Assembly (NCBI GenBank): GCA_017654935.2
Contig: CM065710.1
Span: forward strand, 18,137,743-18,201,742
Source: Phymorhynchus buccinoides
Lineage: Eukaryota; Mollusca; Gastropoda; Neogastropoda; Raphitomidae
DNA: 64,000 nt
Direction: 5' to 3'
Shown one piece after another: positions 1,573-61,841 of the stretch (the first letter of the stretch is position 1; each line of letters starts with the position of its first letter). The translations under genes were made by a program, and so were the position numbers. The notes beneath the pieces are model-generated. The model saw only the letters and a list, made by a program, of their open reading frames with translations, was not told where the DNA came from and did not search any database.

Positions 1573-1704
1573 AGATTGCCCAGAACGGAAACTGTGCGGC
1601 ACAGCCCTCCATGTGCCTGACGGGAGCCGTATGCTCAAGCGCAGCCAACACCCCGACATGCCAGTGCAACGACATGATAGCTCTCCCTAATACCCCCAAA
1701 TGCC
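1573..1704 (+). CDS. Exon A: EGF-like six-cysteine module (left arm)
   Basis: A 132-nt phase 1-1 exon. The acceptor TGTGTCAG ends at 1572 and the donor GTGAGT starts at 1705. The 44 codons give cysteine spacing C-x6-C-x5-C-x8-C-x1-C-x11-C, the classical EGF-like pattern with the C-x-C pair. Such modules form small disulfide-bonded extracellular folds, so the protein is presumably secreted or on the cell surface. The last part of the exon and its donor are duplicated 125 bases downstream, giving a second GTGAGT at 1830. Exon borders are predicted from sequence alone. Confidence 0.68.
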
Positions 1705-1910
1705 GTGAGTGATCCTGCTGCTGCCAGCCTGAAGGATTGGTTGTCTCACTGGCGAGCCCCAATATAATGCTCGTGGAGGTCGATGCCAGTGCAACGACAT
1801 GATAGCTCTCCCTAATACCCCCAAATGCCGTGAGTGATCCTGCTGCTGCCACAGCCTGAAGGATTGGTTGTCTCACTGGCGAGCCCCAATATAATGCTCG
1901 TGGAGGTCGA
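1659..1910 (+). repeat. Two-copy 125-127 bp duplication carrying exon A's 3' end and donor
   Basis: The segment from TGCCAGTGCAACGAC through the donor GTGAGT and about 75 bases of intron occurs twice, starting at 1659 and 1784, with a third start fragment at 1911. The second copy has about 46 nt of exon sequence and an intact donor at 1830 but no clear upstream acceptor other than GATGCCAG. Mirrored at about 10474-10727. Confidence 0.9.
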
Positions 1911-1924
1911 TGCCAGCGCATTTC

Positions 1925-2090
1925 TTTTGCCTAAGGGCATGTACACAGTTCATACGGAAATCACAGGAGCAGTCCGTAAATAAGTAAAAGAAAGAAGGGT
2001 AAAAATAATAAATCACGGAATAGAGGAAATTCGGACACGTGCGCAAATCTTGTCCCTTCTTTCTTTTGCTTATTTTATGGATTGCGCATC
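1925..2090 (-). mobile_element. MITE-like fragment (family of 61440-61636)
   Basis: Contains GGACACGTGCGCAAATCT flanked by TTCTTTCTTTTGCTTATT and a complementary GTAAATAAGTAAAAGAAAG, the same interior as the elements at 15408, 39481 and 61440. Here it is inverted relative to 61440. One end runs straight into the 66-bp array, whose unit contains the element's terminal sequence, suggesting the array grew from the MITE end. Mirror copy at about 10325-10450. Confidence 0.6.
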
Positions 2091-2395
2091 CACATGTATG
2101 TGTGCGCACCCTTAGTACGAATGACTAGCTTTTGCTTATTTTATGGATTGCGCATCCACATGTATGTGTGCGCACCCTTAGTACGAATGTCTAGCTTTTG
2201 CTTATTTTATGGATTGCGCATCCACATGTATGTGTGCGCACCCTTAGTACGAATGTCTAGCTTTTGCTTATTTTATGGATTGCGCATCCACATGTATGTG
2301 TGCGCACCCTTAGTACGAATGACTAGCTTTTGCTTATTTTATGGATTGCGCATCCACATGTATGTGTGCGCACCCTTAGTACGAATGACTAGCTT
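2062..2395 (+). repeat. 66-bp tandem array, about five copies
   Basis: The unit contains GGATTGCGCATCCACATG and CGCACCCTTAGTACGAATG. Since 66 is divisible by three, a 22-residue repeat reads open through the array (118 residues), a by-product of the period. There is no independent sign that it is coding. Confidence 0.95.
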
Positions 2396-2529
2396 TTCTC
2401 TTTTTCTTTGTATTTTTCTTCAAAACTGTCAAAAGTGATGTAGACAATGAGTGGTGTGTCTTTTAGGGCCAATTATGCTATAAGCTCGCTGATTTGAGAC
2501 CAATTTATGCGATAAGCGTGACGTTTTGA

Positions 2530-3375
2530 AGGCAATTTGTAGTATTAGTGTGACGTTTTGAAGGCAATTTATTGCATAAGCGTGACGTTTTGAAGGCAAT
2601 TTGTAGTATTGGTGTGATGCTTTGAAGGCATTTTATAGTATAAGTGTGACGTTTTCAAGGCAATGTATGGTATAGGTGTGACATTTCGAAGGCAGTTTGT
2701 AGTATTGGTGTGACACTTTGAAGGCATTTTATAGTATAAGCGTGACGTTTTGAAGGCAATGTATGGTATACACGTCACGTTTTGAAGGCAAAGTATAGCA
2801 TAAGCGTGATGTTGTGAAGGCAATGTATGGCATAAGCGTGACGTTGTGAAGGCAAAGTATGGCATAAGCGTGACGTTGTGAAGGCAAAGTATGGTACACA
2901 CGTGACGTGTTGAAGGCAATGTATGGTACACACGTGACATGTTGAAGGCAATGTATGGTACACACGTGACGTGTTGAAGGCAATGTATGGTACACACGTG
3001 ACGTGTTGAAGGCAGTGTATGGTATAAGCGTGACGTTTTGAAGGCAATGTATGGTATAAGCGTGACGTTGTGAAGGCAATGTATGGCATAAGCGTGACGT
3101 TGTGAAGGCAGTGTATGGCATAAGCGTGACGTTGTGAAGGCAGTGTATGGTATAAGCGTGACGTTGTGAAGGCAACGCATGGCATAAGCGTGACGTTGTG
3201 AAGGCAAAGTATGGTACACGCGTGACGTGTTGAAGGCAATGTACCGTGCGTGTTGAAGGCAATTTATGGTAGGTATAAAGTATGCCATTCAGAGGATTGT
3301 AGCCGCGACGTTTTGAAGGCAATTTATGCTAAAGGCGTGGCGTGTTGACGGCAATACTTCTATAAGCGTGATGTT
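2530..3375 (+). repeat. 32-bp tandem array upstream of exon B
   Basis: About 26 units of a 32-bp repeat typified by AAGCGTGACGTTTTGAAGG, with variants carrying ACACACGTGACGTGTTGAAG. It ends about 20 bases before the exon B acceptor. Because 32 is not a multiple of three but 96 is, long open frames occur on the minus strand (up to 239 residues); I regard these as repeat artefacts. The unit holds a CGTCA/TGACG core that resembles a CRE half site, significance unknown. Confidence 0.95.
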
Positions 3376-3396
3376 TGGGTTTGTTGGATTCGACAG

Positions 3397-59485: not shown

Positions 59486-59907
59486 TTCATGTGTAAATTA
59501 TATAATATCTTTTCTTTTTATTTGTGTGTCGATTGTTTGGTTGTTTTCTTCCATTTGCTTAGATTCGTTTATGTTTCGGTTTTTCTTTTCTTTTGCCTGG
59601 CATGGTGTAAAAAAAAGAAGCAGAATCAACTTATCCAGTTTCCCTCAATACAAAAAGTTTCGTATTCCTATTCGTATTATCTCTCTGTCCTTGTGAGTCT
59701 GTAAGATCCGCAACTGTGGACTTCCTATCCATCAAGAGTCTGTGTTTCTGTTCCTGTCAATCTGAGCCACCTTTTGCATGACTGCCTGTCTCTAACTAGA
59801 TTTATGTCTGTTTATATATGTATGTGTCTCCCAGTTGTCTCTCTGTGCTTCTGTAAAATTAGACCATCGACTGAATTACCATAACAGCTTTGTCTTGTCT
59901 ACCTCTC

Positions 59908-60022
59908 TCTCTCTCCCTCCCTCCCTCCCTCTTTTTCTCTCTCTCTCTCTCTCTCTCTCTCTCTCTCTCTCTCTCTCTCTCTCTCTCTCTGCTCTCTCTC
60001 TCTCTCTCTCTCTCTCTCTCTA
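59908..60022. repeat. CT microsatellite
   Basis: (CT)n of about 110 bases. Confidence 0.97.
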
Positions 60023-60690
60023 AGGCTAAATGCGTAGTCAACAAACCTTAAAATATCGAACTTCTAATATAAGGCGTATTTATCATTATTGGTGTTTTTT
60101 TCAAGTATCAAAGGAATGAAATTACATTAATCTGAGAAATTCTTTGCTGTTATTACTATTTTTTTATATAATGAGTTTAGAAACCACTTGAAATCACTAG
60201 AAACTCCGAGCTGAAATGGTCTTCTGACAGAAACAGCGTGGACACATACATACGTAAATAAATACATAAATAGAAAAATGGCCATATCCATCTCCGCGTT
60301 TGTTTGCGGAGGACTACAACTGGGGTCGTTTCATAAGAGCTAACGTTACGTAGCGTTCGCTCAAATCGGCAAAAAAACGGTCCGAAAAACGCCCTTGTTA
60401 GCTGATAGTTTGGCAAACGTTTTGTTCTGTCTCGTGGGCTGGCACACCGCAAACCATTATTTGCATCATGGGAAATGTACAACTTTATTTTTTTTTAACT
60501 TCCGGCTAGTATTAGTTCTCGCGATAACGTAACTTTTTGTTTACAAAATCGAAGACAAGTCAAGAAAGTTGACATGACAAATATTCTTCACTTAAAAATA
60601 TATGGGATGATTTTAGCAAATGAAACAAACACAACTATTTTTAGTGCTCTTTCTTAATATTTCATCATGTTAGATGGCATTAATATAGTG
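60023..60690. other. No gene recognised
   Basis: A/T-rich. The phrase GGGTCGTTTCATAAGAGCTAACG at 60321-60343, paired loosely with GAAACTACCC near 61737, hints at a MITE end, but no matching partner defines an element. Confidence 0.35.
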
Positions 60691-61290
60691 CAATCTTATT
60701 TTTCTGCACACAAATTAATGTATGCTCGTCCGTCCCGAGGGATGAAGACCATCCGTCAACAGTTCCAATGTCAAAGGGTTCAGGATGTGGGGTGGGTACG
60801 AAGATGACTGATGAGTCCGATGCGGGCCTTGAAGGTTTTTTGTGACAGTGGGGACAGGAAAGAGAGTTGAGGGGATCTGTTGGAGTTGGAGAATTGCTGC
60901 TGCTCATGCGATTTTTTCGCGCTTCTCGACGTGCCTGGGCTGTCTCGATTCAGTGAGCCTCGAACTTGGCAGCTCCCTTGGTGACTGCACCACGCCATGC
61001 TGATCGGTTTGGGGCCAAAGTTTCCCAGGAGAAAATGTTGATGTCAAAGTCCTTCAGGGACACTTTGAGGGTGTCCTTGAACCGTTTCTTTTGCCCTCCA
61101 TGGTTACGTGCACCAAACTGGAGTTCTCTTTAGAGGATGCATTTTGGGAGGCGCTCATCAGACATTCTAACAACATGCCCAGCCCAGCAGAGTTGAGACC
61201 TGCGAAGCAGCGAAAGGATGCTGAGCATGTCTGTCCGCTGGAGGATCTGTGTCAGGGATCTTGTCCTGCTTTTCACTTAGAGTAGTTTGT
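60690..61290 (-). pseudogene. LINE 3' end with C2H2 zinc finger, decayed
   Basis: On the minus strand, frames read GHVVRM-type sequence, GQKKRFKDTLKVSLKDF, FSWETLAPNRSAWRGAV, then CPHCHK and, in the next frame, TFKARIGLISHLRTHP. This order is the C-terminal tail of a common non-LTR retrotransposon ORF2, ending in a C-x2-C...H-x3-H finger. A shift in the A6 run at 60836-60841 splits the finger between frames. Severely 5' truncated; not a host zinc-finger gene. Confidence 0.75.
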
Positions 61291-61439
61291 GCTGGCAATT
61301 GATATAGAAACGGTTTAGTTTCTTACACAAATTAATAGATTGGCAATGAAATTGGGAACATTTGTACAACCTATCAGAGAGGTATGATGTATCTCCTTTT
61401 TCATAGCAACTCTTTTCTCTCTCTGAAAGTGAAGAGCAA

Positions 61440-61636
61440 GGCTGTGTACACACATAAGCGGATATTCCATGCAGAAACCCGTGCGCAATCCATAAATAAG
61501 TGAAACAAAGAAGAGAAAAGATTTGCCCACGTGTCCGAATTTCCCCTATATGCGTACACTTTGTATCCTTCTTTCTTCCACTTATTTAGGGGTTTTCGTA
61601 CGGAACTTACGCGTCTAATGTGAACCCGGCCTAAGC
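61440..61636 (+). mobile_element. MITE, best copy in window
   Basis: Starts AAGGCTGTGTACACACATAA and ends GCGTCTAATGTGAACCCGGC. The ends are imperfect inverted repeats (GGCCGnGTnCACA). Internally AATAAGTGAAACAAAGAAG pairs with CTTCTTTCTTCCACTTATT, giving a hairpin around ACGTGTCCGAATTTCCCC. About 195 bp, no ORF. Related copies are at 1925, 10325, 15408 and 39481. Confidence 0.75.
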
Positions 61637-61760
61637 TATTAGAGTTATTTTTACTTAGCTAACGTTGTTTGCGGTCATTAGTGTTTCTTAGACCCCTTTT
61701 GGCGTAACAGTTATTCGCGCGGCGACCGTCCTCTTGTGAAACTACCCTGATTTGTTGCAG

Positions 61761-61841
61761 TGCTGAACGTAGGAGATGCATGTCGGGACACCAGCCAGTG
61801 GCTGTTCTGTGCCAGCGGCTTCTGTGTGGATGGAATTTGCA
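61761..61841 (+). CDS. Exon I: four-cysteine module
   Basis: An 81-nt phase 1-1 exon with acceptor GATTTGTTGCAG (ends 61760) and donor GTGAGT (61842). The 27 codons read LNVGDAC with spacing C-x8-C-x4-C-x4-C and the C-ASGF-C core also seen in exon G. It lies downstream of the FTP exons on the same strand and shares their intron phase, so FTP domain followed by cysteine modules is the likely protein architecture, as known in some molluscan surface proteins. It probably continues beyond the window. Confidence 0.72.

What the first reader, a model, noticed from the sequence alone, without database searches (positions are those of the whole stretch)
1573..61841. General pattern: splice-junction-seeded minisatellites around phase 1-1 module exons
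Exons A (donor, two copies), B (array begins in the donor), D (donor array), F (both sides), H and H' (acceptor arrays) all show expansion from an exon border, while C, E, G and I do not clearly. I know of no named mechanism for this. A replication-slippage or break-repair process targeting exon edges could explain exon shuffling in this family and would be new if confirmed.
Basis: partly seen in the sequence, partly recalled or inferred. Interest (0 to 1): 0.85.

Follow-up and report, generated by a model that had tools for sequence, protein, structure and literature searches.

The report
Minisatellites copied from exon edges
Several short exons of this animal gene carry strings of partial copies of their own edge, splice site included, a known but little-studied kind of repeat called a mirage minisatellite in lancelets; here it occurs at several exons of one gene family and at one unrelated gene, without firm evidence that exon edges are hit more often than the rest of the introns.

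Summary
Donor arrays of exons A and D and the acceptor array of exon H have units holding the exon's own edge (about 46, 43 and 27 nt), its splice site and adjoining intron. In the window, arrays at B and F only abut the exon. C, E, G and a missed exon (J) have no junction copies. The 12-kb palindrome is two near-identical contigs joined head-to-head across a 500-N gap.

In the whole assembly the H and D units lie almost only beside this family's exons; copy number varies between family members (A 0 to 8 decoys, D up to about 67). One of ten unrelated Sushi exons read from the same genome carries a textbook case.

Such repeats have a name, 'mirages', in amphioxus (PMC3087553, PMC3902484). They fit ordinary tandem duplication in a minisatellite-rich region, tolerated because the outermost authentic junction stays intact. 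Targeting of exon edges is not shown: 12-20% of junctions versus 25-40% of intronic 30-mers have nearby copies. A null that forbids exon damage does give an excess (P 8e-4), but it was chosen after seeing the data. Array-driven exon shuffling is unsupported.

The parts
1573..1704 (+). exon A, phase 1-1 (an AG upstream would start it at 1549; that AG is absent in P1 and P2, the 1573 one is present)
1658..1920 (+). A-donor duplication: 127-bp unit (about 46 nt of exon A, GTGAGT, about 80 nt intron), authentic copy plus one decoy
3397..3531 (+). exon B (resembles the EB module, just under Pfam's cut-off)
3535..3953 (+). 21-bp array starting 3 nt after B donor; no exon sequence
4380..4463 (+). exon C, no junction copies
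5286..5366 (+). exon D
5327..5746 (+). D-donor array, 79-81-bp unit with about 43 nt of exon D and GTGAGT; runs to the contig end
5747..6246 (.). 500-N gap: centre of the apparent palindrome
6247..7064 (-). D-donor array of the second contig, nine decoys up to the contig end
7024..7107 (-). exon D of second contig: 2 nt gained in the exon, GT of its own donor missing
7972..8055 (-). exon C of second contig
8484..8902 (-). 21-bp B-donor array of second contig
8906..9040 (-). exon B of second contig
10469..10734 (-). A-donor duplication of second contig
10688..10819 (-). exon A of second contig
12777..13960 (+). H' array: inverted relative of the H acceptor array, in the E-A intron
13960..14056 (+). 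H': degenerate copy of exon H (limits approximate)
14202..14279 (-). exon E, no junction copies
16240..17357 (-). 54-bp array region beginning at F donor (units with a GTGAGT-like donor motif; degenerate in the middle)
17357..17437 (-). exon F
17442..17868 (-). 29-bp arrays ending 4 nt before F acceptor; no exon sequence
18367..18450 (-). exon G, no junction copies
24523..24606 (-). exon H
24773..26400 (-). H-acceptor array, 83-bp unit (intron up to AG, about 20 nt of it shared with the exon's own border, then about 27 nt of exon H), about 20 units; it ends 166 nt before the exon, with other sequence between
26429..26928 (.). 500-N gap 28 nt beyond the H array
61761..61841 (+). exon I, isolated module exon of a third contig; 128-bp x2 array from 61873

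Best explanation
These are mirage-type minisatellites. A small tandem duplication had one breakpoint inside an exon and one in the neighbouring intron; the outer copy stays a complete exon with its own splice site, the inner copies are partial exon edges with a decoy splice site in the intron. Later unequal exchange or slippage changed copy number. Shown: unit content, family-limited distribution of the H and D units, copy-number variation between family members, and an unrelated case in the same genome. Inferred: the duplication and exchange steps, and that splicing keeps to the outermost authentic site, so that the arrays are nearly neutral. The gene encodes a chain of 4- to 6-cysteine modules with weak resemblance to EB and EGF modules. 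Enrichment at junctions is not needed to explain them.
For: Units contain exon edge, splice site and intron. H unit: 82 genome matches, all in C31 14.68-14.79 and 17.90-18.16 Mb or at one place on C2599; nine 45-bp matches to the junction itself, each with array matches beside it, 9 of 9. D unit: 82 matches, 78 in the family's C31 and C2608 regions; the other four are short single matches, 3 on C21 and 1 on C31 at 4.65 Mb. Copy number differs: A decoys 1 in W1, W2 and C2608, 8 in P1 and P1', 0 in P2 and P2'; D 5 to 68 units and H 7 to 18 decoys. Exons are constrained between paralogues (dN/dS about 0.4; W1-W2 0.85 from only 8 differences). Reading past the A or D donor meets a stop after 5 or 26 nt, so decoy use would be expected to truncate the protein. 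Unrelated Sushi exon L043: 73-bp unit of 25 intronic and 48 exonic nt, six copies. Published parallels (passages).
Against: No transcript data, so exon borders and correct splicing are inferred. The arrays that abut without exon content (B, F) are not explained by a breakpoint inside the exon unless exon parts were lost later; B's abutment is kept in the four copies compared (3, 3, 12 and 3 nt). Under the exon-intact null, touching arrays exceed expectation (P 8e-4). The second contig's D exon has lost its own donor and its frame, which could be an assembly error or a non-functional copy. An ungapped comparison did not show D units to be clearly more alike within than between copies.
Confidence: 0.8

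Rival explanations
1. A junction-directed process (slippage or break repair at splice sites) seeds arrays at exon edges.
For: 5 of 10 arrays on the second contig touch a junction; P 8e-4 under a null that forbids exon damage. Array edges lie within 5 nt of the B donor, F donor and F acceptor there; the B abutment recurs in W1 and P2 and lies 12 nt off in P1. 1 of 10 control exons also has a junction array.
Against: Junctions are no more often copied than intronic sequence: 4/20, 2/16, 4/20, 3/20 against 25-40%. Unconstrained placement gives P 0.20. The excess rests on a null and a 5-nt tolerance chosen after seeing the data (P 0.0017 with 20 nt), and F's abutment is not kept in all copies.
Confidence: 0.12
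2. The arrays are selected features, for instance decoys that tune splicing or slow processing of the transcript.
For: Decoy donors are mostly intact: GT in 5 of 5 units of W1, 15 of 17 of P1, 59 of 60 of P2 and 67 of 68 of P3, the authentic one counted. A D array was found in each family copy whose D region was read (W1, W2, C2608, P1, P1', P2, P2', P3; degraded P3': one 225-bp match).
Against: Intact sites follow from copying alone; the A array is absent in P2 and P2' and has 8 decoys in P1; copy number varies widely.
Confidence: 0.07
3. Assembly artefact: false expansion or joining of repeats.
For: Two contigs joined head-to-head at an N gap; contig ends lie in or 28 nt beyond the arrays.
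Against: The same arrays with different variants appear in separate gene copies and contigs, and another one in an unrelated gene. The artefact explains the palindrome, not the arrays.
Confidence: 0.02

Closest known systems
'Mirage' minisatellites of amphioxus (Adh3, globins BflGb6 and BflGb9, troponin C; similar repeats in PGBD5)
   Same: Tandem units spanning an exon-intron boundary, on donor or acceptor side; authentic exon retained; unit lengths of tens to about 160 bp; 6 and 3 units in two haplotypes of BflGb6, and copy number differing between gene copies here (PMC3087553 and PMC3902484: passages read; the Adh3 paper itself was not held).
   Different: Here at least three junctions of one gene carry them, and one array reaches at least 60 units over 6.6 kb; splicing and somatic instability are untested here.
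Internal tandem repeats at exon-intron boundaries of human segmental-duplication genes
   Same: Minisatellites at exon-intron boundaries in recently duplicated genes, varying between paralogues (PMC2812944, passages read).
   Different: There supported by transcripts and tied to new introns (27 intron modifications; variable repeats overall average a 30-bp unit repeated four times). No transcript data here and longer units.
Intron gain by tandem duplication of splice-site segments (Rogers model and later work)
   Same: Same initial event, a tandem duplication containing a splice site (as cited in the passages; listing only).
   Different: No new intron is seen here; decoys lie inside an existing intron.

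Membership tests
Mirage minisatellite | Tandem unit spans an exon-intron boundary | tested here: met
   A and D donors, H acceptor; L043. Not met by the B and F arrays of the window
Mirage minisatellite | Authentic complete exon remains at the outer edge | tested here: met
   Intact phase 1-1 exons A, D and H in W1, P1 and P2; exceptions the second contig's D and degraded copies P3' and P3's exon A
Mirage minisatellite | Occurs at donor and at acceptor boundaries | tested here: met
Mirage minisatellite | Length differs between haplotypes | tested here: inconclusive
   H decoys 10 in W1 and 18 in W2; D units 17 in P1 and 14 in P1', but allelism is unproven and the P1' array stops at N
Mirage minisatellite | Normal splicing despite decoys | not testable with these tools
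   no RNA data
Mirage minisatellite | Somatic instability (reported for Adh3) | not testable with these tools
   needs reads from tissues
EB module | Pfam PF01683 over its cut-off | tested here: not met
   Exon B alone 23.6 bits against a cut-off of 24.3; not listed for the other three queries (A-D joined, H-G-F-E joined, A alone); J, X and I were not queried
EGF-like domain | Pfam EGF models over cut-off | tested here: not met
   Exon A 16.5 bits against 21.5
Dispersed satellite or transposon-borne repeat | Units at many unrelated genome places | tested here: not met
   H and D units almost only beside the family's exons; the 21-, 29- and 54-bp arrays were not searched

The most novel reading that the evidence does not exclude
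Mirage arrays arise recurrently across this genome, convergently with lancelets, and exchange sequence with the authentic exon, so that each array is a store of alternative exon ends. In exon A the same amino-acid alternatives (N/D and A/T) are found in exons and decoys in mixed combinations; two site pairs show all four combinations, and in W1 exon end and decoy are identical over the last 45 nt while in its near-identical partner W2 they differ at three of these sites.
Probability: 0.15. Interest if true: 0.7.

Novelty: new member of a known kind. Interest (0 to 1): 0.45.

Why it matters
If mirages are common in this genome (1 of 10 control exons is a small hint), it offers many natural tests of how the spliceosome ignores dozens of near-perfect copies of a splice site, and of the model that new introns arise from such duplications. 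The family gives graded series: 0, 1 or 8 decoys at exon A's donor, and from a few to more than 60 at exon D's.

Tried and rejected
Exon scripts found none or three candidates because of tight splice-score limits; relaxed. One search failed to extract exon J; it was placed. Pfam scans of 26-55 kb found only transposon-type domains, apart from weak matches, and were not complete (three plus frames and one minus frame for each half). The idea that B's and F's arrays contain exon sequence was tested and not upheld. An ungapped comparison did not show D units clearly more alike within than between copies. No solved structure and no homologous protein at E up to 0.001 among 98 candidates for the joined modules; that query lacked exons J, X and I. 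The stop distance printed for exon B is meaningless (no stop found in the stretch). One search placed exon J's start 9 nt off, which changes no array's class. Searches for a mollusc or gastropod case: none recognised by title and start of abstract among 12 listed of 42 and 8 of 8; some searches listed the precedents cited, none that I used.
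Full report
Setting. The window lies at C31:18137743-18201742 of an unnamed 2.12-Gb assembly. It holds small cysteine-rich module exons, phase 1-1 as far as splice-flanked frames show. Exon B narrowly misses the Pfam EB cut-off and exon A the EGF cut-off. No homologous protein or solved structure was found (query without J, X and I). The 'palindrome' at 1-12.4 kb is two contigs joined across 500 N: the whole visible first contig in the window (5,746 bp) aligns to the second with 92 mismatches in 5,811 columns and 48 gap openings. I call the first W1 and the second W2. 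W2 ends in the D array on one side and 28 nt beyond the H array on the other. I take the pair to be alleles or a very recent duplicate; a third version, C2608, exists.

The observation. A donor: a 127-bp unit with about 46 nt of exon, the donor and about 80 nt of intron, present as the authentic copy plus one decoy. D donor: 79-81-bp units with about 43 nt of exon. H acceptor: 83-bp units with about 27 nt of exon; the array ends 166 nt before the exon. Exon-only alignment to these arrays exceeds all of 100 shuffles by a wide margin; some other exon-array pairs exceed theirs by 1 to 4 points. In the window, B and F arrays abut the junction without clear exon content. C, E, G and J show no junction copies.

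Family comparison. Copies at C31 14.68-14.79 Mb (P1 and an inverted partner P1', 99.1% identical over 15 kb) and 17.90-18.07 Mb (P2, P3 and partners P2', P3') keep the same exon order where read; P3 and the partners were read in part. A decoys: 1 in W1, W2 and C2608, 8 in P1 and P1', 0 in P2 and P2'; P3's exon A is damaged and was not compared. D units including the exon: W1 5, C2608 5, P1 17, P1' 14, P2' 14, P2 65, P3 68 (W1, C2608, P1', P2, P2' and P3 stop at or near a contig end, a stretch end or N, so those are lower bounds); W2 has ten. A stricter count gives 60 and 68 for P2 and P3, with GT intact in 59 and 67, and 15 of 17 in P1. H decoys: W1 10, W2 18, P1 12, P2 7. Copies of the F edge lie further downstream in the intron: 1 in W1, 0 in W2, 5 in P1, 1 in P2, so F has a junction array in P1 after all. 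Among W1, P1 and P2, W1 and P2 are closest (dS 0.08; P1 about 0.14). As W and P1 share the A unit, its lack in P2 is most simply a loss (inference). In the genome the H unit gives 82 matches, all in the family's regions, with 9 of 9 junction matches flanked by an array; the D unit gives 82, with four short single outliers. All candidates of the first look were scored (19 of 19, 16 of 16), but that look skips simple and very common words, so counts are lower bounds.

Control. Ten of the 150 listed Sushi-domain matches of the same genome were read, 8 with 400 bp and 2 with 230 bp on each side. They were picked by me from the list as separate places with short open frames, not at random, and their boundaries were inferred by script. 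One of 10, L043 on C21, has an acceptor array of six 73-bp units with 25 intronic and 48 exonic nt; the other nine show no junction copies. The phenomenon is thus not confined to this gene; its rate is poorly known.

Is it more than chance? Two nulls disagree. Ten merged arrays cover 34% of the second contig. Random placement gives 3.3 touching an exon (P of 5 or more, 0.20); if placements that damage an exon are forbidden, 0.86 are expected and 5 observed (P 8e-4; 0.0017 with a 20-nt tolerance) (the H array, 166 nt from its exon, counts as not touching). By coverage, junction 30-mers with a copy within 3.5 kb were 4 of 20 (W1), 2 of 16 (W2, D left out), 4 of 20 (P1) and 3 of 20 (P2), while intronic 30-mers outside microsatellites were 397 of 999, 292 of 888, 364 of 1046 and 320 of 1265. 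The binomial tests used 3 of 18 for W2, counting D; lower-tail values were 0.05 to 0.22, and the junctions of related copies are not independent. Junctions are thus not enriched by coverage. The exon-intact null was chosen after seeing the data. The abutting F arrays are not conserved in position, the B array is. I conclude that targeting is not shown, nor excluded.

Mechanism. Best supported is ordinary tandem duplication with one breakpoint in the exon, kept because the outermost junction is complete, followed by copy-number change. Reading past the A donor meets a stop after 5 nt (W1, P1) and past the D donor after 26 nt (W1, P1, P2), so decoy use would be expected to truncate the protein; purifying selection on the exons (dN/dS about 0.4 between paralogues) suggests that the authentic sites are used. 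That step is inferred.

Known kind. Amphioxus 'mirages' match in anatomy (passages of PMC3087553 and PMC3902484); the original Adh3 paper was not held. Human boundary repeats are described in PMC2812944 (passages). Passages of PMC4039745, on an intronic minisatellite near alternative exons of a nematode, do not concern junction-spanning units. My searches for a mollusc case listed none, which is not proof of absence. The family here is a new member of that kind, notable for several junctions in one gene and for array size.

Exchange between decoys and exon. Exon A ends and decoys share variant sites in mixed combinations. Among the six tails of W1, W2 and C2608, the N/D site and the silent C/A site show all four combinations; adding P1, the N/D and A/T sites do as well. 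This suggests, but does not prove, conversion; recurrent mutation is possible.

Noticed in passing
window 5747-6246 and 26429-26928: Two 500-N gaps; the contig between them is in part a near copy of the first contig in inverted orientation, so the 12-kb palindrome is a scaffold join (or an unresolved inverted duplication).
   Followed up: partly
window 7024-7107: Second contig's exon D has 2 nt gained and its donor GT missing, while the next decoy donor is intact; could be assembly error or a dead copy.
   Followed up: partly
window 12777-14056: Exon H with its acceptor array exists as a degenerate inverted copy in the E-A intron; inverted H-array matches also lie in other family copies.
   Followed up: partly
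window 28.7-29.6 kb, +: Tc1/mariner-like transposase remains (DDE_3 and HTH Pfam matches).
   Followed up: no
window 19744-23313 and 49.2-55.2 kb, -: Long open frame of 1189 aa and fragments related to it; weak reverse transcriptase match near 49.7-50.0 kb (E 0.031): probably LINE-like elements.
   Followed up: no
window 47961-48224 and 50283-50830: About 107-bp arrays whose consensus units look like reverse complements of each other, on either side of a reverse-transcriptase-like fragment (by eye).
   Followed up: no
C31 14.68-14.79 Mb (L011, L012, L019, L020): Second gene copy also present as an inverted pair, 99.1% identical over 15 kb, with a 500-N gap and large N blocks between.
   Followed up: partly
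C21 33.99-34.45 Mb; C31 4.65 Mb: Short single matches to the exon D edge without neighbouring array matches: possible diverged relatives lacking the array.
   Followed up: no
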